From contig NC_091144.1 in NCBI RefSeq assembly GCF_041381155.1, positions 35,937,262 through 36,001,261 on the forward strand: DNA of 64,000 bases. Direction: 5' to 3'. The first letter of the stretch is position 1. Every line of letters starts with the position of its first letter. This document shows positions 3,497-63,223 of this stretch, one piece after another. The DNA is from Argopecten irradians. Its lineage: Eukaryota; Mollusca; Bivalvia; Pectinida; Pectinidae. The translations under genes were made by a program, and so were the position numbers. Under the pieces are notes generated by a model. It was not told the DNA's origin, did no database searches, and saw only the letters and a list, made by a program, of their open reading frames with translations.

Positions 3497-3799
3497 TCGA
3501 TACTCCAGGGATTACTATCACTTACGTCATATCTACCCCTGGACTATTTCATTGTAAAACTGGAGGCAGTTCAGAGGAAACAAGAATGACCAATAACAGG
3601 CCTACAAAGACTTCCCTTTAGGACTACAGAGATAGCGACGCCCAACGTCAAAGCAACATAGTCAACCACAGTGTACCATTACTCAATGCCTTTGATGTAC
3701 ATCAAAGAATCAAATGATCTGTGTCTCATGAACTGCATTTTTTCTGAAATTGTCCCGGGGTGGATATGACGTCAGTGAAAGTAACCTCTGGAGTATCGA
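3497..3799. mobile_element. MITE-like element with TCGATACTCC inverted ends
   Basis: The left end TCGATACTCCAGGGATTACT is matched by the reverse complement of the right end over about 45 bp, including an internal ACGTCATAT and a CCCC-containing block. The 303-bp element has no ORF. A second copy with the same ends lies at 45567-45859. It sits about 45 bp upstream of the FReD exon, inside the presumed intron. No convincing target-site duplication is visible. Confidence 0.8.
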
Positions 3800-3842
3800 G
3801 GATGCCGTTATGACTGTATTACGATGTTTTCTTTCTGTTTAG

Positions 3843-4096
3843 TCGATGCTTTGAAGTACATGAACGACTCTGACTTCAGCACTTTCGACCGAGATAATGA
3901 CAAAGCATTTCTTCATCACTGTTCTAAGCTATTTCGAGGAGGATGGTGGTACAATGCTTGTTTTTCTGCTAACCTCAACGGTCAATATATGGTAGATAAT
4001 GGAAATCAAGAATCCACAGCGATGGTTTGGGAATCTTTTCCAATATCTCACGAGGAGTTTGTTCCTTTGAAGAGCTCCAAGATGATGTTAATATAG
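3843..4096 (+). CDS. Fibrinogen-related protein (FReD), terminal exon
   Basis: This exon encodes the C-terminal part of a fibrinogen-like domain, the glycan- or acetyl-group-binding module of ficolins and other secreted lectins. Visible hallmarks are DALKYMND, then FSTFDRDND (the Asp-rich calcium loop), then a cysteine, GGWWYNACF and NLNGQY, then a terminal LKSSKMML before the TAG stop. It starts at a good acceptor (TTTCTTTCTGTTTAG) and enters mid-codon, so the N-terminal half of the domain, the signal peptide and any collagen or coiled stalk must be in upstream exons that I cannot find in the window. An AATAAA at 4621-4626 could end the transcript. The domain call is firm; whether the gene is complete is unknown. 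The ATG at 3824 lies in the intron and is not the start. Confidence 0.85.
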
Positions 4097-13928: not shown

Positions 13929-13934
13929 TTTATT
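13929..13934 (-). terminator. Candidate polyadenylation signal of secreted helical protein A
   Basis: AATAAA on the minus strand, 78 bases past the stop codon at 14012-14014. Confidence 0.5.
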
Positions 13935-14011: not shown

Positions 14012-15634
14012 TTAGTCACCATTTCTATAAACCGGCACGTTATCAATATCGGAGTTTAGGTCATGTTTGAAGTCGTGGATAAGAGTGTGTGCTCTCCGGA
14101 GGTTTCGACATGTAAATAGTGTAAGGTCAGTCCTATCCATGTGGTCCAAAGTCAGCTCCACCACACCTCCAGTTTGCATTAGATCACTGCATTGCCTTTG
14201 CATCTGACACACGACGTCTCTCATCACCGGGTAAAGGTTTGTGACCGATAGGCTCCTTTCGTGACAGCTCGAGATCGTAAGGTTTAGGGCTATCTCTAAC
14301 AACAAAGGCATGCCGTTCCGGAGAGTACTCGCCTACAGCATAAATTCTACTTCATCAAATCAAGAAATTAAAGATGCTATATATTTCATATTTTCAAAAA
14401 CGTGTAAAACTGTTACACGTACCAGCATGGCTAGCAATAAGTATCATGATTCAAATGATCAATTTCTGAAGTTATTTGTGTGTTTTAGATTTAACGTTCA
14501 TTTAAGGACGGCGTGTATGCAATATGTTGCGGTGTGAATGTCTGTATGTTTTGGGAGGCTGCGGTATATTCATTTGAATTGAGGAACGCTTGTCCCTTTA
14601 TGGCGCTAGATCACTGAAGCATGTCTGAAATAATGCTATTTTTATAACTGCATGACCAAATTGCACCAATAACAAAGTCCATATAAAAGAGGCTAATTTA
14701 AAAAAAAAGATATGAAGCATGGCATAGCTTTAAGACGTTTTTCGTTTTGTAAGTGAATGAAAGACGACAACCTTTGCGAGATGTATACTTACCACACTAT
14801 GTCCACTTGGTGTAGTTCTATCTATTGGATCTACCTCACACAAACTCCTTCTCATACTGACTCTGTTATGCTACGTAAATAAAACATAGAAGACAATTAC
14901 ATCTTTAAATACGATAAAGTTGTTTACAGAACCCTCGATAATTAGGGTAATTCTGTCCAGACTGTTGTTCAGCACTATAGGCGTTCGAATTGTTTAAGGT
15001 CGACTGTATTTTACATACAAACAAGATCATCGGATATGTATTAAATGCTGGAAATGTTTGAAACAGAATGGTTTGTATTGGTGTGATGAAATGCTACTAA
15101 CAAACACCTTTTACTCACTAACTCATCTCTAGCCTCCCGGATATGTCTTTGCGCAAGGTCCAACTGTCCGTTTAGAGAACCTGTATCACAAATATTAAGT
15201 TCCTCTGTATTAACCAATGAATGATCCTCACACATCGCCGTGGTATCCAATCGGTATGTCTGGCTTTCATTGTCCGTTGTGTGTGAAAAGACTCTTTGGC
15301 CCGGACAATGAGCCCGAGTTAACGAAAAGCAAAGGGAAAATGCTAACAGACTCGTTATGGCATTCACTGAAATGAAAAAAAAAACCCTAACAGTTGATAA
15401 CATTCACTTAACCTTAAATTGAACAAAATCTATTGCAATGAGAAATTATTGACCGGTCAATATTTTCTGAGGATTTGTATATTTGTAACGATTTTCAAGC
15501 AATTTCATGTGAAAACAATCAAAATTACTTTATCTTCACTTATATAGAGGGTTAGGTAACAATTTAGATTATGAATTAATTATTTATATTATTAACATAG
15601 GTGAAGTCGAAAGAAAACACGTACTTATACTCAT
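14012..15634 (-). CDS. Secreted helical protein A, four exons (unrecognised family, cytokine-like)
   Basis: Coding exons on minus: 15634-15625 (ATG plus 7 nt, phase 1, donor GTACGT), 15366-15119 (248 nt, acceptor TTTCAG, donor GTGAGT), 14870-14793 (78 nt, donor GTAAGT) and 14332-14012 (stop TAA). The deduced product is about 218 residues. Exon 2 supplies a hydrophobic signal peptide (ITSLLAFSLCFSL), then CPGQ and cysteines, and ends in a likely amphipathic helix. Exon 4 holds three more likely helices: NGMPLLLEIALNLTI, YPVMRDVVCQMQRQ and FTCRNLRRAHTLIHDFK. Its paralog at 18476-21697 has the same exon lengths and phases, and seven cysteines align. Secretion and a four-helix fold are inference. 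I do not recognise the family; a helical cytokine or growth-factor relative is possible. The first exon is the least certain part. Confidence 0.75.
14490..14625 (-). repeat. Degraded SINE fragment inside intron 3 of gene A
   Basis: Reverse-orientation SINE blocks are recognisable (TTTAAGGACGGC, TTTTGGGAGGCTGCGGTATATTC, ATCACTGAAGCATG) but diverged. It lies between exons 3 and 4 of secreted protein A. Confidence 0.6.
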
Positions 15635-17220
15635 TGCAAACGTGTCCTCTTGATGACTTTGGTTTAGTTTTTTAAGTTTTACGTCCTTTTAGCAGTCGCC
15701 GTTATTTAACAATATGTAGTAAAGATTTTAAAATTATTGATTTTATAAAAAATATGAAGTTCAAAGGGAAACATGTGCGAATCTTTATCCTCAATACAAT
15801 CGATTTCAACGAATATTATGTACTAATGCTGATCTCAGCGATGTATTATAAAATAATGGCACCAAAGAGACACGGCCTTCTTTGTTGATTATCGTACAAA
15901 AGTTACTAGGTCAGTCAACCCATTGTTGAACTACATAGTGATTCCTGAGTGTATACATCCAAGATTATTCAATTCATAAATAAACAACCATATTTAATAC
16001 ATTTTTGTACTGAGTGAGTGAGCATTAATATAAATAGATTATGTGAAACATCTTTCTCTCAAACTATGCCCATTTTAGTTAGTTATTTTTATCGGCTACA
16101 TGACTCCACCTATTACTGACTTCGATTATTTACCATGACAATAAAACAGCTCCTAATAGAGATATTTCAAATTGAAAAATCTATGATTATGGATCTCTAC
16201 TAAACTTTACAAAAGAGTTCGATAATTCGGTAACAATCTGTTTTGTAAAATATTCATAATTGATAAAATCGGGATACTACGATATTACTAACACTTCTCA
16301 ATGGTACCCGAGGCTAAATTAATTAATAAATATCATAAATAGATGGATACTTACTTTTGGTTTATTAGTTTTCTGATCAGGAGTGTTCCAGTGTATGCAA
16401 CGTATAAGTGGTTTACCTTGTTTCGTAATTATTTCAAATTACAGATAGACAAATTCTAAAGTACCATCCATATATAAACAAATCAAACCAATCATCTTCG
16501 GAATCTGATTATAGACAAAACACCATTGGTCGTTTAGCTTGTAAAATCCTCATTACAGAGATATACAATGATTGGTTCATTAGCTAATTACATTTTAAAA
16601 CAAAAAAAGGTTAACCAAAAATAATTGTGACATTACCAGTATACCTTTAAATAAATGTCCTGTAATTAGTTCCTGTTTATCGTTTTTTTAATAATGATAC
16701 TACGACAATGAGGATAGGCCTTAATACAATACCATTATAAAGGGTGTATTGTTAGTAACGGACAAAGTGTATGACAAGCTAAGTGATAACATCAGTGGAG
16801 ATTCCATATTATTTCCTTACGCTTCAGTGAAGTCTTCTTCCTTAGAACGTCTTATATCATTAAAGATTTGTAGCTCTCTGTTCCTTAATGATCATTGAAT
16901 GATATTTTATTTGGCCCGATCGGATTGTAAACTCTTTAAAAATAAATATCAAGTTATCAACCTTTTTTTTTCGACATAGAAGTACGGTCCATCGAAAGCT
17001 AATGTAATTTAGGATTGAACTATTCTCTTAAACAGTTTAGTAGCAAAATCGTTAAGACTAAAAAAATATGTATCGGATATTAATCATTTGAATACAAACA
17101 GGTGTCTTATTTCCAAACATGTTTTATATTCAAGACTAAATGTCATTTTCAAGAGATTTGATTAACTTGACCAGCTTCGGGGACAGGCGAGTTCACAAGT
17201 ATTACATCATTTTGGTTTGG
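15635..17220. other. Intergenic AT-rich DNA upstream of gene A
   Basis: Should contain the promoter of secreted protein A, but no clear TATA or factor site stands out from the AT-rich background. Confidence 0.35.
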
Positions 17221-17515
17221 CTTAAAGTATTAGATTAACGTCCTATTAACAGCCAAGGTCATTTGAGGTCGGCGTCCCATGTACAGTGTATGCGATATGT
17301 TACGGTGTGTGGATGTCTGTATGTTTAGGAGGTTGCGTTATATTCCCGTTTCGTCTCCTTGTAGTAGACGAATTCTTACAATTTTTATAGTGCTTTCTCA
17401 CTGAAACATCGCCCGGAACAACATACCTCTTCCGGTTACATTATACCGACAACGGGTAAACCAGTAGTCAATATTATGCTGAACACTAAACAGGGTCAGA
17501 AACTACCTCTTTTAT
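17221..17515 (-). repeat. SINE, reverse orientation, diverged
   Basis: Reads AACGTCCTATTAACAGCCAAGGTC, then CCATGTACAGTG, GTTTAGGAGGTTGCG and finally the antisense TTATACCGACAACGGG block. These are antisense landmarks of the common SINE; the outer head is missing. Confidence 0.7.
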
Positions 17516-18475
17516 AGACTGTACTGTGTAAATAAAAGAAAATAATGCACTGTTATAACATCACAAGTGACACATTCATGTAACATGCAATTAAAGTCCT
17601 TTATAGACTCAAGCTTCAAATCGAGTCGCATGAAAAGATATACCCATGATATTAGTCTATTTTTAGAAATAGTGATTTCTTTGGTTCTTAAAGCAAAAAC
17701 CAAACAAACTAGAGTTGGTTGCATCAGTTTTGAAAATTTATTGACAATCATAAAAATGTTTATAAAACAATGACTTGAAACAAAACAACGAGTAGGAACG
17801 TATAAAGAAAATGTGAACAACAGAAAACAACAACTTTCATTCATTAAAAACAATAAAAACAAAACAGTTTTTTATCAACACAGAATTAAACAGAAGATTA
17901 TATTATGAAACATATATAAACACCTAATGCAATAAATGCATTATCGAAATGATTATATAAATGTGAATAATGATAATAATGATACAAACCAAAATAAAAC
18001 ATATGAATATAACAAAAATAAACATGTAAATTATTCAAAAAGATATAGATTTTATATGATAATGCGTTATTTTAATACATAAGTGGATTCTTCACGAAAT
18101 GAAAGACGTATAAATGTAACGTAAACAAAATCTTCAATGTTCACCAAATATTGTAAATATTAATTTAGATAATAAAGATTTCGTTTTTTAACGAAGAGAT
18201 TCGTAAGACAATCTACAATGCCATCTTGTAAACAAAATCACAATATTACAGATTCTTGAACCTTAAAATACATTCAGTTATAGAAACAAAAACACTACGA
18301 AGGCTTATGGAAGATGTCCCAGTTCGTCAACTCTGGTGGTCACGAATTTGAAACCCAACACATATGTCGAGAATTGTATCCCAATACCTTTCATTCAATA
18401 TGAATTACTTGTAAATATCTATAATCCGTTTTCAAGTTTATGTCATAACTTGACACATGTAAGTTCTCTAGAAAT
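17516..18475. other. 3' flank of gene B, very AT-rich
   Basis: The ORFs at 17512-17862 (minus) and 17567-17773 (plus) overlap antisense to each other and have no recognisable domain. Probably spacer or 3' untranslated sequence of secreted protein B. Confidence 0.4.
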
Positions 18476-20276
18476 CTATCCTTCAGTATTTTCAAAATCT
18501 CTGATTATGTCATTTTTGAGATGATTAACAGCTGACATTGCTCTCCTCAAATTCTGGCAAGTAAATATGGCGGTGTCTGTTGTGTCCATGAACTCCAGAG
18601 AAATACTTGCTCTAAACTTGCTTCTTTCAATCGGTATTGTGAATCTCATTAGCTTTCTCATCTCACATATAATTGTGCGCATTGGCTGATGGACATTGAA
18701 ACGCCCCTCACTCGAGAACCTTCGATGGCGGTGGCAATTTATGATCGTCATGTTCAACGCAATCTCCGAAATCAGCTCAACTCCATTATGAAGTGTATCC
18801 GTCTATAAAGAGATATAGAACAGATTAAACAAGGAAGATGACAAATTCCTGGTGTATAACAGTAACCTATAAAATAAACAACATGCCTAAGATGACCTGT
18901 ATCGCTCTCCTGGCAAGTTAAAAAAAGTTACTTCATTTTCTTATTACCCATTTAGTCTGTAGAGGTCAAGACCTCAAGACCCCTGAATATTCGTGCCATT
19001 TTAGCTGTTAATATAATATTATTTTATGAATGTTATCAACTTTTATTACAAAATGAAACTTTATTTTCTTTTCATCTATATCCAAAAAGTAGTAAAAGTT
19101 TGAGATTATTCATAAACAAAAGTGTATAACCCACAACTTAGAACAGTGATGTCAGTATTGTGTACTTCTGTGATGTCACGAAACTTACCATACTATTTCC
19201 ACTTTGAAAGTCTGTGTGATCGTAAGGGCTTCTTTCACATATTTCTCCTGCCCATGATATCTCACTATCCTAAAGAAATCAAAGGTATATATTCGTAACG
19301 GTCATCTTAATCTGTCCTATATAGTAGTCCATCTGTTAACACCAGCTTATGGCCAGTTCTGATCAGTTTAACTGGTATACATGGAAATCACAACCCGTAA
19401 ACGTCAGATCTATGTCACCATTACATGTGTAAATTAGAAAGACAAACTTTCGAAAGACTTTAAGTTAAGAAATAATGTACAATATTTTCAATAAAAAGAG
19501 CGTCTTTAAAAAGCATATTCCATTATTTTCAGAAAATTGTGGCTAGGCATGAATACATGGGTATAAACTCATGAGATAAGATACTCATCAAAAATGCTTT
19601 AACATGCGTGCTCCACTATCAAAATGTTATTATTTAGCAATGTACTCACTAGTTCGTTGGCCGTGGCGTTGAGTACACCCACAGCTTGAGACATCAGATC
19701 TGTTATAGAATCGACATAACATATGGGTACTGATGTGATCCCCGAGGATTGAGGACAGGATAGTGACGTGTCAGTCGTGAAAACATCATAACCATGGCGA
19801 CGGAGACGTTGATGGGTAAACTCAGGGCCGTGTGGGCAGCTACAGGACGCTAGCTGTATCGATATGGCGAGCAGGGTGAACAGTAGGGTCACGATCACTG
19901 TAAATATATATACATTCATTCATATTGGGCTATATTGATTTTCATTTCTATCAGGTTTATTAAAATGATTAAGCTTTGAATGAACCGGCGTAAAATGAAA
20001 AGCAATTCATAAGATTTCATATATAATAATATAATAAATGATATAAAATAAGCATCATTTTCTGTTGAATTTTAACACATTTGGCGCAAAATATAAAAAT
20101 GTACATTTCAAAAGATTTTATAAAAAAATAAAAAATCAGACAGAAGCTCTTACTGTCTACCAATATTTTAACGCTGAGATTAAATTTCACGTTTGTAGGA
20201 TTTCAAATTTTTAACGCGAATCAATATATTAATTTTAAAATTAGGCGGCACAAGTTTTGTTGAAATTGAAATGCTA

Positions 20277-20308
<32 letters not shown>

Positions 20309-21697
20309 TTTACTTAAAGGGAAAGTGTCACTTTATTTTATTACATACAATCTTTCTCAAGATTTTTCTGCTTTATTTTTCCATGCGTCAATGTATTTGA
20401 CATTAGTTTATTATAGAAATAATAAAAAAAAACAGTTTCAGAAGAACTAACATGCATTTACATAATATGTAATTTTATAACCTTGTCGATAGTACAACCA
20501 TATCATGAAACGATAATTCCAGGTAATGCCTAGCCATTTATTTACAGAAAGAGACCCGGTCTGTTTGAACTAAGGCACACTATAACACGTTTGCACGCTA
20601 AAAATAATCATAATGTGTATGGTTAAAATTCAATTTAAATAATATAATACTCAAGGCATTCATTAATATTTAGACAACTCGATATGTTGATTAATAAACA
20701 AATGTTAAATCTAGTTTCGGGGACCATGAAAATAAAAATGATTTAACATTTCTTTAGTTTGATACTACGGATTGTGAAAATTGTTGTTTTGACTCGTAAA
20801 GCTTGACATACGAATCCTGAGATTGTCTTGCATTCCATATACCGCTTAATAAATAACTGGTGTATGACGAATGCCAGAAGACAATAGCATGATAAACAAT
20901 AGATTTTAAAACAAGCGTTCCTAATTTAGAGTTCACGTATATTAAATGTTTACAATATATATTTAGATACCACATTTCATTTGAAAATAGTTATGCACTC
21001 ATCATGTGGTCATTGTATGACACATGTATTAATTAATAACATGAAATGTTTCATTCAGTATATTGACTGATTAAGTATAATAATATAGTGCCTTGCAATT
21101 GATATTATTAAACTAAGATATGCAAAAGACAAATAAATAAACGCTTAAGATATATGAGATATAATAATTTGAAATTACTTTGTATTTAAGGTTTCTAATT
21201 ATTAATGCAAGACAAGTACTGTTAACGTACAAAATTATTACTTTAATAGGGCCAATCATATCTGATCACTTTTCGGCACTGAAACTTTTGCGATAATTGC
21301 TCGAATTGCATCTCCATGAATGACTTTCATACAAAAAATTTAACAGATTTTGCTAAATTGTGGATACATTCTGATAACCTGTTCAAACCAATTTTTGCGA
21401 TAAAATTTGATGGCGCATTATTCTAACCTTAACGATACTTTAATATTTTATGATAAATTATTTTTGAAGTAAAAGCAAACAAATCGATAATTTCTAATTT
21501 AATAATAATTCTCCGTCTGATATTCACATAAGATATAATCAAGAGATTTTGAATAAAATTTGAAACATGAAGATCAAAATTGGTTTCAAAGAATAACTTT
21601 CACCTTATAATGACAAGAACGATTCCCAAGTGATTCAATCATTATCACGTAGATACATGTATATACACCCGTAACTTTACTTACAAATTATCGCCAT
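18476..21697 (-). CDS. Secreted helical protein B, paralog of A, four exons
   Basis: Exons on minus: first exon 21697-21685 (ATGGCGATAATTT, 13 nt, phase 1, donor GTAAGT, context ACAATGG) or alternatively 22515-22503 (also 13 nt, phase 1, donor GTAAGTAT); then 19897-19650 (248 nt, acceptor TTTACAG), 19269-19189 (81 nt) and 18802-18476 (stop TAG). The product is about 222 residues. Exon 2 encodes a signal peptide (TLLFTLLAISIQLASC), then SCPHGPEF, and ends in a helix-like SITDLMSQAVGVLNATANEL. Exon 4 carries HNGVELISEIALNMTI, MRTIICEMRKLM and FTCQNLRRAMSAVNHLKNDI, each aligned to gene A. Shared motifs include [IL]CE..P.D.T...SG.S in exon 3 and MD.TD...FTC.NLRRA in exon 4. Exon 2 is the same length in both genes and its first and third cysteines sit at identical positions. 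Probably secreted. Function unknown. Confidence 0.75.
18880..18925 (+). repeat. Possible solo end of a Helitron-like element
   Basis: GCCTAAGATGACCTGTATCGC then TCTCCTGGCAAG resembles the conserved 5' end of the tandem-core element at 11471. It lies in the last intron of gene B; no core repeats follow. Confidence 0.35.
20277..20302. repeat. Poly-A tract
   Basis: A run of about 25 A within the first intron of gene B. Confidence 0.9.
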
Positions 21698-21699
21698 TG

Positions 21700-23880
21700 T
21701 GTTTTGAAAGAAACGAAGGTATGAACTTACATATTTTAGAATCCCTATTTATTGGCCTAGAAGAGGAAATTCCAATTTTCCTTCTAAATATTCCTTTTAG
21801 AGATTTTTGAAGCAGCAAGATTAAAGCAATCTGAGACCTCTTCGTCAGCTGGAGAACCCTATACAACCCACGGCAGCTTACCTTTATTGGAATTTTCAGG
21901 AGCGTAGAAACTTTAAATAAAATTGGTATTTTCCTCGTCCATAAATTTATATCCGGTTCATTCTAACATTTTTCTGTAAATATGTTTTCTATTTAGACCT
22001 ATGCCATATTTTGATTAAAACAATAGGGAACATATTATAGGTAGGAATGTACGTTCATCCTTTTATGCTTAGTTAATGGCGCGTTGATAATTTACGAGCT
22101 TATTCGAACAATCGGAGATCTCGTCATTCAAAGTTGACAACCAAACAGTCCATGTACAAATGTGGTTTCGGTATAATATTTTTACCAATAGGGATTGCAT
22201 TGCCATAAGTTCTATATCAAATATTAAATTTATCTTTTATTAAAACAGATGGTTTGGATTCATGAAAGGACATTGCTAGTTGAGAACAATCAAAAAATCA
22301 AATACTGTATGTTAAAATTATTAGCTAACATATAAGTTGACCACATTTAATGAGTTGCATAGAAGGTGATTTTGGTACATGTATGGAGAGGGTGATTTCG
22401 GTACATGTAGGGAAACGAATGCAATGGAATGACAATAATGCAATATATTTGGACGATAGATATATTGCAAATGTTAAAAATTTACAAAAAAGTGATACTT
22501 ACTCTTGACATTCATTTAAGAATATAATGATTCTTCTGGTAATTGAAGTAAAAACCGTGCGATATCAGAGTGTGATCAAGATAATTAATTATAATGAAAA
22601 AGCAAACGTCATTTATATACTAATTTATTTGGATCCCCCATTTGAAAATTATTGTTGAGAGGATCAAATATTTAAGGAAATGATAATACATATCGATGAT
22701 ACTAAAATTCTTGTTTCAGTTTCAAAAATACATTTTACTTATTTAAAAAGATAAATTAATACAGCTTATCCAATGTACTGGTAGGTAAATCAGGTATCGT
22801 TTTCCTCAAAACTTCCGTTCACTGAAACAATAGAAAGACAATGGAAACTAGATTTTACAGATCCAGACGTTAACTTCCTATCTTGATGAGATGTTGGCTT
22901 TGTTAAAGATCTCAGGGTGATTACGTTACAAGTCTTCATGGACGTATTACAATACTAGTATAGGTCACGAGCTGTTAAACACATTGCTGACAACTATCGT
23001 ATTGTAATCGTTAAACAATACAAAATTAGTATATAAGATAGGTATTGCATCGTGAGTGGAACATTCCAACCAGGAAGTCGAAGTTTTTTTTATGTTTTAT
23101 CGACTGTAATATGCCAATCGCGTTACAAGGTCAATCCCATTGAAGAATGCGACAATAAATGTTCTTTCAAAATAGACTCTGACGTTGTTTTTATCAAGAA
23201 TATATTGTCTATATCAGGTCAAATAGAATATGAATCATATGTGAAAATACGATATGGCATAACATTGGCGGAAATGGATGTGTTTTTTGTAAATGATTTT
23301 AAAGCATGAAAACTGAAAGTTAAACCGGCAAATGTAGAGACTATCAACGTGAATCGGTAACATGTGAGTACATTGCTTCATCAAGAATATATAAATCATG
23401 TATGAGTAACGGTTTACTTCGTGGAAGTTTTGAATTTTTGAGGTTCCAGAGGCCTTTTCTTGAAGCAGCCTGCCAAAAAAAAAATCAAAAGTCAGAATTT
23501 GTAAAATAGCGTAAACGAAAGAATTGTTCAGTTCCAATTTCCACTAAATATTGAATACTTCATCGGTATGTGTATCGGCTTAATACTGCAGTTTTGCCAT
23601 TCTACATATACTCGTGAAATAACTAACATGCTAGAGCATGTTCTGAAATTTATAACGAATAAAACTATCAAAGCTAAGAGCATACTTAGTTAGTTAGTTA
23701 ACACAAGAGGAACATGGGTCGTAATGGCCTTTTGATTACTGGTACGATACAAATATACCAAAAATATTCACCTTTTCTTCAACTAAAAATTAAATCATTA
23801 TATTCTAAACACTCTTCAGTAGAAGTGTTTGATACAAAGTATTTGGCAGCTGATTATGAATAAAGGTCAAAGTTATTAAT
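21700..23880. other. 5' flank of gene B, AT-rich
   Basis: Contains the alternative 13-nt first exon at 22515-22503. Otherwise no domain-bearing ORF; the 85- and 100-codon ORFs near 23.1-23.5 kb overlap antisense and look like chance. GGTGATTT(T/C)GGTACATGTA is directly repeated at about 22370-22408. Confidence 0.4.
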
Positions 23881-32680: not shown

Positions 32681-33811
32681 CTACTTGACCTCACTATTGC
32701 TTGAGTTCTGACTGTAGCTAATGGCGCGGATACTATGCCTGCCATTAGAGCCCGTTCCACTTGTCGACACAGTGCTCCTGCACGCGAAACACTTGAGCAC
32801 GGCCCGTCGAACTTTGTCATTTATAACACCATATATGAAGGGATTTACACAAGCGTTGGCCAAGGCGAGACACAAAGTACCAACGAGAGCGAGAGATGGT
32901 ACCTGCATGTTATCGTAAATTCCGTCAATTAGAATTATGACGAAGACCACAAATATTGGTAGCCACATGAGTATAAATAGAACCACAAGAAGAAGTAACG
33001 TTTTTACCACTTTCACATCTCGTTGATCCCGAGATTTCCGGGTCTTCAGTGAGTTTGAATGTAACACGTCCACCCTATTGTGGTTATTCAATATGGCGCG
33101 TCGTGATCTGACAAATTTTCTGATAATCTTGAAATAGTTAATGCTCATTATGGCTATTGGAATGACAAATCCCACTAAACAACTCAAAGCAGTAAAGAAA
33201 ATTGACGCGCGAAATCCAGAAGTCTTTGGCCACGATAACGTACAAATTGTGACGTAGTCTCTTCCGAAAGGAAATGACCTGGTATGGAAATACATTGCAA
33301 GTGGAATAAAGCACAAGAAACAGACGATCCATGTAACTATGATAATGGCGACTGCTACACGTGGTGTCATCTTCTTAGAATTAGTTTTGTTGATGCAAAT
33401 ATGTCTATCAATGCTGATTACGGTCATAGTCCATATCATAACCATTGCACAAGTAAACAAAAAGTAAACAAAAAACTTACATATGGCATCTCCGAAAATC
33501 CAATTACCTGTTATACGTGTTATAGCTACGATCGGACTTCCGAATGAAAACATAATATCCGCCAATGCTAAATTAGCGATCATACAGTTAGTCACCGTTC
33601 GGGTGCTGTTGGTCTGGAACATTTGGTAAAATATAAGCACGTTTCCAAACATGGAGAAAATAAAAAGCACAGAAAACACGAACGCTTCTATGTATTGAAG
33701 TCCTTGCCATGGACGGTTGAATTCCGAAATAAAGGTGAAAAATGAGGAGTTCCCGTAACCATATTCATGAATGCCGTAGAACCAAGAAGTATTGAAGTAG
33801 GACGTTTCCAT
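32681..33811 (-). CDS. Rhodopsin-class GPCR, free fatty acid receptor 4 (GPR120)-like
   Basis: A 376-residue seven-transmembrane receptor in one uninterrupted coding exon. The start is the ATG at 33811 in a strong ACCATGG context; the six codons upstream belong to a GTG-initiated frame. N-glycosylation sequons sit at Asn7 and Asn21. Class-A hallmarks: GN at 56-57, LALAD at 81-85, Cys111 and Cys190 as the usual disulfide pair, DRH at 135-137 in place of DRY, MWLP at 282-285, NPFIY at 323-327, and cysteines 341 and 344 after helix 8. FFAR4-like features recalled from the human protein are SIDRHICI, TICTLSWP and the MWLPI region, plus Arg99 aligned with human Arg99. The natural ligand is inferred, not shown. 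A 5' untranslated intron is likely (acceptor TTATCTCCACAG near 33860). Confidence 0.9.
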   Translation of the reverse strand: METSYFNTSWFYGIHEYGYGNSSFFTFISEFNRPWQGLQYIEAFVFSVLFIFSMFGNVLIFYQMFQTNSTRTVTNCMIANLALADIMFSFGSPIVAITRITGNWIFGDAICKFFVYFLFTCAMVMIWTMTVISIDRHICINKTNSKKMTPRVAVAIIIVTWIVCFLCFIPLAMYFHTRSFPFGRDYVTICTLSWPKTSGFRASIFFTALSCLVGFVIPIAIMSINYFKIIRKFVRSRRAILNNHNRVDVLHSNSLKTRKSRDQRDVKVVKTLLLLVVLFILMWLPIFVVFVIILIDGIYDNMQVPSLALVGTLCLALANACVNPFIYGVINDKVRRAVLKCFACRSTVSTSGTGSNGRHSIRAISYSQNSSNSEVK

Positions 33812-33861
33812 GGTGATGCTGGGAACCACTGCAACTGCACCTCACTCGATGTCTGTGGAGA

Positions 33862-58707: not shown

Positions 58708-58966
58708 GAACATCCCTATTCTTCCTAACAATAAGGTATAAAAAAAACATGATCAGTACAGATATCATGCCATTTCCGAAATATGAAAATTGTGTGATAT
58801 TTTAAAAGATGATTCCTTTACACTTAACACAAAATGTACTAAACTGGTGTCATCTGGTAAAAAATGTAAATACTTATAGTCACTTGCGTGTGAGTCTATT
58901 TCATGGTAATGAATAACGTGATCTAGAGTTGGTCAGTAAAATGTAACTCCAGGGGTAAAATCTTAC

Positions 58967-59038
58967 CATGGCTATTCCAAGGTAACCGCAAATGCTGATA
59001 CATGTTACTGTGAACACTGCCAGTCTCATTAAGGTTAC
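58967..59038 (-). CDS. 72-bp transmembrane exon cassette, copy B
   Basis: 24 codons, VTLMRLAVFTVTCISICGYL then GIAM, between acceptor TTTACAG and donor GTAAGA. It belongs to unit 2 and is also the first of three 189-bp direct repeats. Confidence 0.5.
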
Positions 59039-59155
59039 CTGTAAACACAAGAGCGACAACAGTTCAGTAAACAAATATACACACATGGGTTTATAGCTGC
59101 TATCACTAATATTAGAGTTGGTCAGTAAAATGTAACTCCAGGGGTAAAATCTTAC

Positions 59156-59227
59156 CATGGCTATTCCAAGGCAACCGCAAATGCTGATACATGTTACTGT
59201 GAACACTGCCAGTTTCATTAAGGTTAC
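59156..59227 (-). CDS. 72-bp transmembrane exon cassette, copy C
   Basis: VTLMKLAVFTVTCISICGCL then GIAM; acceptor TTTGCAG, donor GTAAGA, phase 0-0. Confidence 0.5.
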
Positions 59228-59344
59228 CTGCAAACACAAGAGCGACAACAGTTCAGTAAACAAATATACACATATGGGCTTATAGCTGCTATCAATTATA
59301 TTAGAGTTGGTCAGTAAAATGTAACTCCAGGGGTAAAATCTTAC

Positions 59345-59416
59345 CACGGCTATTCCAAGGCAACCACTAATGCTCATGCATGTTACCGCGAATACTGCCA
59401 GTCTCATTAAGTTTAC
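59345..59416 (-). CDS. 72-bp transmembrane exon cassette, copy D
   Basis: VNLMRLAVFAVTCMSISGCL then GIAV; acceptor TTTGCAG, donor GTAAGA. The most diverged intact copy. Confidence 0.45.
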
Positions 59417-59531
59417 CTGCAAACACAAGAGATACAACAGTGCAGTAAACAAATATACACATATGGGCTTATAGCTGCTATAAATTATATTAGAGTTGGT
59501 CAGTAAAATGTAACCCAGGAGTAAAATCTTT

Positions 59532-59600
59532 ACACGGCTATTCCAAGGCAAACGGAAATGTACATTCCTGATGATATGGCAATCAAGAAGAAGTTTTCCT
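59532..59600 (-). pseudogene. Diverged exon cassette, copy E
   Basis: After TTTGCAG the frame reads ENFFLIAISSGMYISVCLGI then AV (22 codons), so length and first half differ while the last six residues match. The donor is altered (GTGTAAAGA in place of GTGGTAAGA). Possibly dead, or a variant using a shifted donor. Confidence 0.4.
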
Positions 59601-59639
59601 GCAAACACAAGAGTGACAAAATTTCAGTAAAACAATAAA

Positions 59640-60781: not shown

Positions 60782-63223
60782 TTGGAACCTCCCAAGCCGT
60801 ATCACATGGTCAATATCGGCAATAGTCGACCAGATTGGAATAGAGCAGACCAGTTCAAATACCTCGGAGCTATTTTAAATGCGTATACGTTAAAAATACG
60901 CTCAACTAAAACAGAAACACAGGAAATGGGCGTTCCTCAGGGTGGTATCCTGTCCGCCACACTTTTTGGATTAAAAATTAACAGCATAACTGAATGTTTT
61001 GGTCAATCGAAGGCGCGGAACATTCTACGAGTTCTGATTGGGGTGCAGACCGTGATGGCCCTGCAGATAGGGCGTAAGAATTGTACCTGCTGCCCCTATT
61101 GCATGATCGTAAAAGGCGACTAAATTTAGGATCTTATCTTTTCTCTTCTTCCTAACTGACTTTATCTTTCCTAATGCCTCCCTTGGCACCGCCTCACTTT
61201 TGGCCTTGAGTTGAGCGTTCGCCCCTGTGAGGAAGGCTCTGGGTTCTGTCCCCTGGCCGAGACACATCAAAGTCTATAAAAGTGGTAGTTTCTGCTCCTG
61301 CTTAGCGCTCAGCATACAGGGATTGGGACGACTGGTTCGCCCGTTGTCAGTATAATGTGACCGGGTGGAGTGTGTTGCTTGGTGTTTTCGGCGGCATGCT
61401 TCAGTGATATAGCACTATAAAAAGGGCAGCAGTTCCACTATACAAGAAGACACAACATGAATATACCGCAGTCTCCCAAAACACGCACCTCGCTCAACAT
61501 ACACGCAACACAACTCATACATGGGAGACCGTCCTTACATGACCATAGCTGTTAATAGGACGTTAATTAATCAAACAAACAAACAAAATGCAGACCGTGA
61601 AATGCGTCTACGTAACTATCGGGCACTGATTAGATCAAAACTTGACTACGGCTCTATTGTCTATGCTCGCAGCTCCTATCTATAGATGCTTGACCCTATA
61701 CAGAATCGGGGACTGCGTCTCGGACTTGGAGCTTTTCGAACAACACCTGTTAATGAGTCTCCATGTGGAAGTTAATGAGCCATCTCTAGACGATCGACGA
61801 AAGAAATTATCCTTACAGTATGCTGCTCAACTGAAATCCAACCCCAAAATCCCGCATTTAACCTTGTATTCAATCCACAACAGCATGAAATATTTACACG
61901 AAATCAAAAGCTTATACCAACCTTTGGCATCAGAATTTCAAAATATTTGCTGGAACTAAATATATATTTCGACACCATAGACGAGTATACCGAATCGGAT
62001 GTACCACCATGGCTCATTCAAACACCTGATATCAATTTATCTCTACATGAGAGGGCAAAATCCAGTGCATTACCCGAAGAACACAAATCCTCCTTTCGAA
62101 AGTGCATTAGGGCTTTCCCTGATCATGTTCAGATCTACACTGACGGCTCAAAAGATGGCGATAATGTTGCGGCAGCATGCTGTACATCTAAATACTGCTC
62201 CTCTATCCGACTCCCGGATGTTGCCTCCATTTTCTCTGCGGAAGCATGTGCTATCGGTCTGGCGCTTGACCATATCGAAGAACACCGCATTGAAAAGGCA
62301 ATCATCTGTTCCGACTCTCTTCCTGTTCTTCAGGCTTTGAAATCAAGAAACCCTAGAAACACATTAATCCAAAATCTTTTGATTCGAACATTTCGATTGT
62401 CTTCTAAAACTCAAATTATTTATCTCTGGATTCCCAGCCATGTGGGTATAAAGGGAAATGAATAGGCCGATAAAGCAGCTAAGACACTGCTCTTCGCCTA
62501 GCACAAACACTTTTGAAATTACCTCACACCGACACCAAACCTTACATTCAGTCACTATTAAACACCATTGGCAACAAAGGTGGTCTACCGAAACAAACAA
62601 TAAACTGTTTAAAATACAACCCTACACTTGATCCTAAACTGTCCAGTCGGAGAGACTGCAGAGAGGAAGTTGTTTTCTCTCGGCTCCGACTTGGACAAAT
62701 ATTTAACACATTCCTATCTATGGAAAGAGGAGGATCCTCCTACATGCCATGCATGTGATTCTCCTCTCACAGTGGAGCATGTTTTATTGCATTGTATTGA
62801 TTTTAAACACATACGAGATAATTACTATGATGTCTCCGACATGTACACTTTGTTTCATGCCGTGAGACAATCGTATTTTCAATTATCTCAAAGAGATCGG
62901 CATTTTTAACAAAATTCGAACGTTTTCTCATTTCATCTTAAATACATATCAACGCAACACTCATCGTTTCGTCAACATAGTGCATGAGTTTTCTCATGTG
63001 TTTTAGCCAAAACTATTTTATCCTATGTAACTCTTTTTATCAAATCTGTAACTCTTTTTATCAAATCAACATTTATAATTTTGTTTTAGTTTTTACTTGC
63101 CTTTTTCTTATTCTTATCTTTTAGATACAGTCCTTGTTTATATCCTGGTACTAATGCCTGCCCTGTAGTTTGGCCCTAAATGACCTTAGTTGTCGATGAG
63201 CCGTAAACCTCAAACAAACAAAC
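60782..63223 (+). mobile_element. LINE of the I/Nimb group, decayed, 5'-truncated
   Basis: Order of remains: a KYLGAIL block normally found after the reverse transcriptase active site; a reverse transcriptase block GVPQGGILSATLF (about 60928); then, past an inserted SINE, YRALIRSKLDYGSIVY and RRKKLSLQYAAQL; an RNase H domain (IYTDGSKD, FSAEACAIGLAL, ICSDSLPVLQAL, WIPSHVGIKGNE) at about 62110-62480; and a C-terminal zinc-binding stretch CHACDSPLTVEHVLLHC near 62740. An RNase H after the reverse transcriptase fits the I/Nimb side of the LINE tree rather than classic Jockey. The frame changes several times, a stop follows WIPSHVGIKGNE, the KYLG block is out of order and the catalytic YADD region is missing, so the copy is dead. 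The 3' end is a (CAAA)n tail at 63211-63222. Confidence 0.85.
61056..61588 (+). repeat. Full-length SINE inserted in the LINE
   Basis: 533 bp, from TGGCCCTGCAGATAGGGCG to the (CAAA)n tail. A perfect 12-bp target-site duplication, TGCAGACCGTGA, flanks it at 61044-61055 and 61589-61600. This copy defines the family's true ends. Confidence 0.95.

What the first reader, a model, noticed from the sequence alone, without database searches (positions are those of the whole stretch)
14012..22515. Tandem pair of unrecognised secreted, cysteine-containing helical proteins
Two neighbouring minus-strand genes have the same four-exon plan with signal peptides. Exon 2 is exactly 248 nt in both, and seven cysteines align. 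Shared motifs are CP at the mature N-terminus, [IL]CE..P.D.T...SG.S, STL.NG...EIALN.TI..CH, MR..[VI]C.M and MD.TD...FTC.NLRRA. Between the motifs they are very divergent, as expected of fast-evolving immune or reproductive ligands. Four likely helices, one ending exon 2 and three in exon 4, suggest a helical-bundle cytokine or hormone. I know of no named family with these motifs.
Basis: partly seen in the sequence, partly recalled or inferred. Interest (0 to 1): 0.85.

Follow-up and report, generated by a model that had tools for sequence, protein, structure and literature searches.

The report
Candidate helical cytokine genes, three copies
Two neighbouring genes, and a third just outside the window, make fast-diverging secreted proteins of an unrecognised family that look built like vertebrate helical cytokines and could be signalling molecules, but the fold and function are not shown.

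Summary
Genes A (15634-14012) and B (22515-18476) share intron positions and phases, a 248-nt exon 2 and seven aligned cysteines. A third full-length homologue, C, lies 7 kb left of the window. Own-genome searches, which score only the best candidates, found no other intact relative; none appeared in Pfam, PDB sequences, viral contigs or prokaryotes. Codon-position conservation supports coding genes. A 78-81-nt phase-0 exon lies between predicted helices A and B, like EPO's 87-nt AB-loop exon (PMC5473850). A 10-13-nt phase-1 first exon resembles IFN-lambda2/3 (PMC2654155) but is uncertain in B. The genome has FERM_F2 (JAK-type, recalled) and STAT pieces. Exon-4 models are helical but of very low confidence, without fold match. 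Best reading: a new family of secreted four-helix, cytokine-like ligands, unproven. No rows listed by nine paper searches report it. That the host is a mollusc was not tested.

The parts
15625..15634 (-). gene A exon 1 (ATG plus 7 nt, phase 1)
   Evidence: the only candidate of up to 25 nt in the 3 kb upstream of exon 2; chance of a 10/13-nt candidate in 258 nt 0.016
15119..15366 (-). gene A exon 2, 248 nt: rest of signal peptide, N-terminal cysteine region, predicted helix A
   Evidence: hydrophobic N-terminus and helix moment
14793..14870 (-). gene A exon 3, 78 nt, phase 0-0: inter-helix (AB) loop with one conserved Cys
14012..14332 (-). gene A exon 4, 321 nt with stop: predicted helices B, C, D
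   Evidence: a second 13-nt candidate starts at 21697; a 10/13-nt candidate is expected by chance in 15% of stretches of 2605 nt
19650..19897 (-). gene B exon 2, 248 nt: rest of signal peptide, N-terminal cysteine region, predicted helix A
19189..19269 (-). gene B exon 3, 81 nt, phase 0-0: AB loop with one conserved Cys
18476..18802 (-). gene B exon 4, 327 nt with stop: predicted helices B, C, D
15741..15747 (-). TATA-like box 113 nt upstream of gene A's ATG (weak: AT-rich DNA, not tested against chance; none found within 600 nt of gene C)
22613..22619 (-). TATA-like box 104 nt upstream of gene B's ATG (weak: AT-rich DNA, not tested against chance)
13929..13934 (-). AATAAA starting 78 nt after gene A's stop (possible poly-A signal)

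Best explanation
A, B and the outlying C encode a small family of secreted, disulphide-bonded, N-glycosylated proteins that fold as a four-helix bundle: helix A at the end of exon 2, the AB loop in exon 3, helices B, C and D in exon 4. They most likely work like helical cytokines: released into the haemolymph or tissue, they would bridge two chains of a class I-type cytokine receptor (IL6R/Domeless-like or CRLF3-like) and switch on JAK and STAT. Shown here: the genes, their paralogy, shared intron positions, coding selection, a hydrophobic N-terminus, shared cysteines, an N-glycosylation sequon in predicted helix B in 3 of 3, and FERM_F2 and STAT domain pieces in the same genome. Inferred: disulphides, glycosylation, the fold, the receptor, the pathway and the biological role.
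For: Three paralogues with introns 2 and 3 at the same alignment columns, phases 0-0, and a 10-13-nt phase-1 first exon (chance of such a candidate 0.016 for A, 0.028 for C and 0.15 for B). Exon 3 of 78-81 nt between predicted helices A and B parallels human EPO exon 3, 87 nt (coding nt 160-246), which holds the AB loop of a four-helix bundle (PMC5473850, passages); 312-327 nt follow it here and about 336 in EPO (my arithmetic from a recalled coding length of 582). IFN-lambda2/3 have a first exon of four codons plus one nucleotide with all other introns phase zero, and helical cytokines are described as notoriously hard to detect by sequence (PMC2654155, passages). Segments A, C and D, chosen by eye, have their hydrophobic moment peak at 95-105 degrees in 9 of 9, shuffle p 0.004-0.061. 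Both exon-4 models are mostly helical. Sequon N-x-T/S in helix B in 3 of 3. Codon position 2 most and 3 least conserved in 3 of 3 pairs. STAT_bind pieces at two places on C4 and FERM_F2, a JAK-type domain (recalled), at two places on C15, all over the curated cut-off.
Against: No Pfam match over a cut-off in 3 of 3 proteins and no PDB sequence match with E < 0.1. Exon-4 models have mean pLDDT 48 and 45, and the fold search of the first gave two rows with E 6.8 and 7.8. Helix B is not significantly amphipathic (p 0.085-0.244, 3 of 3) and peaks at 180 degrees in 2 of 3. The vertebrate intron between helices C and D is absent. Exon 3 of C does not align with that of A or B better than shuffles do. 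The receptor domain PF09240 gave no match and PF09067 two below the cut-off; controls were silent (28) or rang below the cut-off in two prokaryotes (59), and exons are read apart, so this is not evidence of absence. The FERM_F2 open frame had no PDB sequence match with E <= 0.01 and its kinase part was not looked for. Shrimp Domeless is reported to be activated by a C-type lectin, so a mollusc receptor need not have a helical ligand (PMC13203501). Phase-1 introns near signal peptides are common in secreted proteins (general knowledge).
Confidence: 0.48

Rival explanations
1. A secreted helical, disulphide-bonded hormone or reproductive/pheromone protein of a new fold class, which acts through some other receptor (for instance a GPCR or receptor kinase) and is not a helical cytokine.
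For: Same secretion, cysteine and divergence evidence. Seven cysteines is more than most long-chain class I cytokines have (recalled). An N-terminal region with further cysteines precedes helix A. No fold or sequence link to a cytokine was found.
Against: The exon plan resembles that of helical cytokines in the tiny first exon, the phases and the separate loop exon. Length and helix count would fit a four-helix bundle.
Confidence: 0.27
2. A secreted effector of defence (antimicrobial or pathogen-binding protein), with rapid divergence driven by microbes.
For: Clustered, strongly divergent secreted cysteine proteins are typical of defence effectors (general knowledge). A fibrinogen-like exon, a domain common in mollusc defence (recalled), lies in the same window at 3785-4096.
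Against: Proteins of about 200 aa with a conserved helical core (STL.NG..EIALN, ICEM, TD...FTC) are unlike small cationic peptides; no known antimicrobial family in Pfam.
Confidence: 0.15
3. A very diverged member of a known molluscan cytokine family such as the oyster interferon-like protein CgIFNLP.
For: CgIFNLP is described as low in sequence identity to vertebrate interferons but similar in three-dimensional structure to class II helical cytokines (PMC9756803, passages), with a receptor, CgIFNR-3, that could activate human ISRE and STAT3 elements (PMC8218723, passages). IFN-lambda2/3 share a tiny phase-1 first exon, and fish type I interferon genes have four phase-0 introns (PMC4929537, passages).
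Against: CgIFNLP is said to have an IFN domain, whereas Pfam listed no interferon family for our proteins at E up to 10.
Confidence: 0.07

Closest known systems
Erythropoietin and other long-chain class I helical cytokines (EPO, G-CSF, IL-6, growth hormone)
   Same: Secreted, about 200 aa; predicted helix A, then a separate phase-0 AB-loop exon of about 80 nt, then helices B-D (EPO exon 3 in PMC5473850); tiny phase-1 first exon (recalled for EPO and GH); Cys at the start of helix A (recalled for EPO and TPO); sequon late in helix B (EPO has Asn-83 glycosylated, PMC5473850; its place near the end of helix B is recalled).
   Different: No detectable sequence similarity; no intron between helices C and D (EPO and G-CSF genes have five exons: PMC5473850, PMC6389648); more cysteines and a cysteine-bearing N-terminal extension; fold not shown.
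[quoted passage not shown]
   Same: IFN-lambda2/3 have a first exon of four codons plus one nucleotide, then phase-0 introns (PMC2654155).
   Different: Five conserved exons plus the tiny one, against three plus the tiny one here; no Pfam or PDB sequence match.
Oyster interferon-like protein CgIFNLP
   Same: A mollusc protein reported as similar in structure to class II helical cytokines (PMC9756803).
   Different: Reported IFN domain; no interferon family found here. Sequence not compared.
Insect Unpaired (Upd) ligands of Domeless
   Same: Proposed role only: ligand of a class I-type receptor that drives JAK-STAT (Upd named in PMC13203501).
   Different: No sequence or gene comparison was made.

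Membership tests
Class I helical cytokines | Secreted soluble protein with N-terminal signal peptide | tested here: met
   Hydropathy over 11 residues peaks at residues 6-7 in 3 of 3 (2.1, 2.9, 2.5); the highest later values are 2.0 (A, at 122), 1.5 and 1.4. No dedicated signal-peptide predictor was run.
Class I helical cytokines | Four-helix up-up-down-down bundle | tested here: inconclusive
   Exon 4 alone models as mostly helical at pLDDT 48 and 45; helix A amphipathic; full length not folded.
Class I helical cytokines | AB loop on its own exon between phase-0 introns (EPO type) | tested here: met
   Exon 3 of 78, 81 and 78 nt, phases 0-0, 3 of 3, given the predicted helix positions.
Class I helical cytokines | Tiny first coding exon ending in phase 1 (EPO/GH type, recalled) | tested here: inconclusive
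   Well supported in A and C, ambiguous in B; in-frame ATG in the exon-2 open frame of A and B.
Class I helical cytokines | Intron between helices C and D (five-exon plan) | tested here: not met
   Predicted helices B, C and D lie in one exon in 3 of 3.
Class I helical cytokines | Sequence or profile match to a known family | tested here: not met
   Pfam; PDB sequences.
Class I helical cytokines | Binds a class I cytokine receptor and signals through JAK-STAT | not testable with these tools
   FERM_F2 and STAT_bind pieces exist in the genome; receptor domains PF09240 and PF09067 not found over cut-off.
Interferon-like (CgIFNLP, type I-III IFN) | IFN domain detectable by profile | tested here: not met
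   No interferon family at E up to 10.
Interleukin-17 | IL-17 domain detectable by profile | tested here: not met
   No such Pfam match at E up to 10.
Insect odorant-binding proteins | Six Cys with C2-X3-C3 and C5-X8-C6 spacing (recalled) | tested here: not met
   13, 33, 37, 18 and 32 residues lie between Cys 49, 63, 97, 135, 154 and 187 of A (positions).

The most novel reading that the evidence does not exclude
These genes are the missing ligands of the mollusc IL6R/Domeless-like or CRLF3-like receptor: a protostome branch of the class I helical cytokines that kept the ancestral exon plan while its sequence drifted beyond recognition, so that the exon plan, not the sequence, is the trace of common descent with EPO, IL-6 and growth hormone.
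Probability: 0.3. Interest if true: 0.87.

Novelty: new variant of a known kind. Interest (0 to 1): 0.6.

Why it matters
A 2026 survey reports that molluscs have an IL6R-like receptor, JAK and STAT but no canonical IL6 ligand, and leaves room for other ligands (PMC13203501, passages). The ligand of the widely conserved receptor CRLF3 was said in 2022 not to be identified in any species (PMC9633726, passages). Three genes with stated exons give a concrete candidate for either gap. If right, and if the host is a mollusc, they would carry helical cytokine signalling, with its exon plan, back to before the split of molluscs and vertebrates.

Tried and rejected
Rejected: chance ORFs (three paralogues, shared introns, codon-position bias). 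Rejected: a known Pfam or PDB family. The only rows were spurious: Pfam GAPES4 E 0.089 and 0.091 and COX2-transmemb E 0.58; PDB rows E 0.39, 1.6, and five from 0.11 to 1.7. No relatives in viral contigs or prokaryote genomes (75 and 50 pattern matches, 0 confirmed). AU-rich instability elements after the stop are not in excess (ATTTA 1, 4, 3 observed against 2.9, 3.5, 2.3 in shuffles). STAT-site and NF-kB-like motifs within 600 nt upstream were few (STAT-like one in A, one in B, none in C; NF-kB-like one in B) and not tested against chance.

Led nowhere: finding the species through myosin exons against scallop structures; the exons read did not look like striated-muscle myosin to me and no comparison was made. 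Hits reach contig C16 and the assembly has 846 Mb, which would fit a 16-chromosome scallop such as Argopecten (recalled, untested). Fold search of the first exon-4 model: two rows, E 6.8 and 7.8; the second model was not searched. No tRNA genes in the window.

Weak rows kept in view: C2:71200434 (E 0.0025) matches 49 residues of exon 4 at 33% with two stops, perhaps a decayed fourth copy; it was left out of the count of three. The remaining rows had E 0.41 or more. The exon-3 proteins of A/C and B/C do not align better than shuffles (431 and 445 of 500 shuffles reach the score), so C's exon 3 rests on length, phase, position and one Cys that is one place off. Genome searches with exon 2 of B and of C found only themselves at E <= 1, so they missed known paralogues and prove little. 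The tiny-exon control counted GTACG donors because gene A has one. The exon-plan comparison was made after the fact and has no background sample of secreted genes.

Literature: nine answered paper runs; they list at most 20 papers each, and none of the rows listed reports this family. Ten papers were opened, and only passages were seen: PMC13203501, PMC4929537, PMC1963337, PMC9633726, PMC2654155, PMC5473850, PMC6389648, PMC12162339, PMC8218723, PMC9756803. Most subscription papers are not in the library.
Full report
What is there. Reading the minus strand and testing splice sites in a script confirms the two genes at the stated coordinates. Gene A encodes 218 aa and gene B 222 aa. 6 of 6 introns are GT-AG; phases are 1-0-0 in both; exon 2 is 248 nt in both; seven cysteines align. 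Identity is 32% overall and 38% in exon 4.

A third member. Searching the window's own genome with exon 4 of A, B and C in turn (only the best candidates are scored) found three places with E below 0.001: A, B and a third gene, C, on the plus strand at G000:C11 35927789-35930272, about 7 kb left of the window. C has exons of 13, 203, 78 and 312 nt, GT-AG introns of phases 1-0-0, and encodes 201 aa. C faces A and B across about 21 kb. Five of the seven cysteines shared by A and B fall in the same columns in C; the exon-3 one is one place off and the N-terminal one is shifted. A profile of exon 4 run over 279 kb around the cluster scored 150-159 bits for these three and at most 13.5 bits for anything else. 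A weak match at C2:71200434 (E 0.0025, two stops) may be a decayed fourth copy; this is not established.

More than chance. Of 500 shuffles, 0 reached the real score for the whole protein in any of the three pairs, nor for exon 2 or exon 4. Exon 3 aligns above shuffles for A-B (0 of 500) but not for A-C (431 of 500) or B-C (445 of 500). Codon position 2 is the most conserved and position 3 the least in 3 of 3 pairs, and GC by codon position is 0.41-0.50 against 0.26-0.34 in the introns.

The first exon. A candidate of at most 25 nt ending in phase 1 at a strong donor is found once for A (10 nt), twice for B (both 13 nt) and once for C (13 nt) within 3 kb upstream of exon 2. In random stretches of the same region as long as the first intron, a 10- or 13-nt candidate occurs in 1.6% (A), 2.8% (C) and 15% (B) of cases. 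So the tiny exon is well supported in A and C and open in B. A and B could also start at an in-frame ATG just before exon 2 (15403 and 19919); the open frame that holds exon 2 of C has no ATG before it.

Anatomy of the protein. A hydrophobic segment at the N-terminus, a cysteine-bearing N-terminal region, an amphipathic segment at the end of exon 2 (helix A), a loop exon with one cysteine, and exon 4 with further predicted helices. Segments A, C and D, which I chose by eye, have their hydrophobic moment peak near 100 degrees in 9 of 9 cases; segment B is hydrophobic rather than amphipathic. A sequon lies in predicted helix B in all three. Two AlphaFold2 runs on exon 4, with two sequences each, gave helices at 2-25, 38-52 and a broken stretch 69-104 in B, and at 2-23, 34-53 and 62-97 in A, at mean pLDDT 48.4 and 44.8: helices are plausible, the packing says nothing.

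Relatives. None over a cut-off in Pfam for 3 of 3, none with E < 0.1 in PDB sequences, none confirmed in viral contigs or prokaryote genomes. No collection of animal genomes other than the window's own was on hand, so absence of relatives in other animals is not shown.

What it works like. The exon plan is the best clue. [quoted passage not shown] it reports that IFN-lambda2/3 begin with an exon of four codons plus one nucleotide and that the other introns are phase zero. PMC5473850 (passages) states that human EPO has five exons and that exon 3, 87 nt from coding nt 160 to 246, holds the AB loop of a four-helix bundle. Here the coding parts before, in and after exon 3 are 258/78/321 (A), 261/81/327 (B) and 216/78/312 (C); for EPO 159/87/about 336, the last from a recalled coding length. 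The intron that separates helices C and D in vertebrate genes (recalled) is missing. This comparison was made after the fact and I had no background sample of secreted genes to say how rare the plan is.

Pathway. The genome holds STAT_bind pieces at two places on C4 and a FERM_F2 domain, JAK-type by recall, at two places on C15 with equal scores, all over the curated cut-off; the kinase part was not looked for and the FERM_F2 frame had no PDB sequence match. The receptor domains PF09240 and PF09067 gave nothing over cut-off; the controls do not allow this to be read as absence. PMC13203501 (passages) reports IL6R-like receptors, JAK and STAT in molluscs and no IL6, leaves the ligand open, and notes that shrimp Domeless answers to a C-type lectin. 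[quoted passage not shown] PMC12162339 (passages) places the origin of IL-12 receptors before molluscs.

Verdict. A real, unnamed family of secreted proteins, most likely helical and most simply read as cytokine-like ligands. Membership in the class I cytokines is not claimed: one gene-structure feature and the sequence tests fail, and the fold is untested at full length.

Noticed in passing
window 32681-33841 (-): Single open frame of 386 aa for a rhodopsin-type GPCR; Pfam 7tm_1 E 1.9e-52; the best PDB sequence matches are somatostatin receptor 2, then neuropeptide Y2, free fatty acid 4 and CCK receptors.
   Followed up: partly
window 3785-4096 (+): Open frame with the C-terminal part of a fibrinogen-like domain (Pfam Fibrinogen_C E 9.1e-16), a domain common in invertebrate defence lectins (recalled).
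   Followed up: partly
window 61779-62465 (+); further copies at G000:C11 36015798 and 36004331: RNase H part of a retroelement, repeated nearby almost unchanged.
   Followed up: no
window 58901-59623 (-): Open frame made of repeats of about 65 residues that look hydrophobic; no Pfam match, perhaps a minisatellite read in frame.
   Followed up: no
G000:C11 35849444-35852946 (outside the window): Some 3.5 kb of a short tandem repeat that is open in several frames at once.
   Followed up: no
G000:C2:71200434-71200589 (locus L011, 1501-1656): Possible decayed fourth copy of exon 4: 33% identity over 49 residues, two stops.
   Followed up: partly
window 21685-21697 (-): Second possible 13-nt first exon for gene B; its first four residues (MAII) are more like those of gene C (MAVL).
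   Followed up: partly
G000:C15 31249332 (-) and 31266377 (+): Two FERM_F2 matches with equal scores in open frames of 323 aa on opposite strands 17 kb apart, perhaps an inverted duplication.
   Followed up: no
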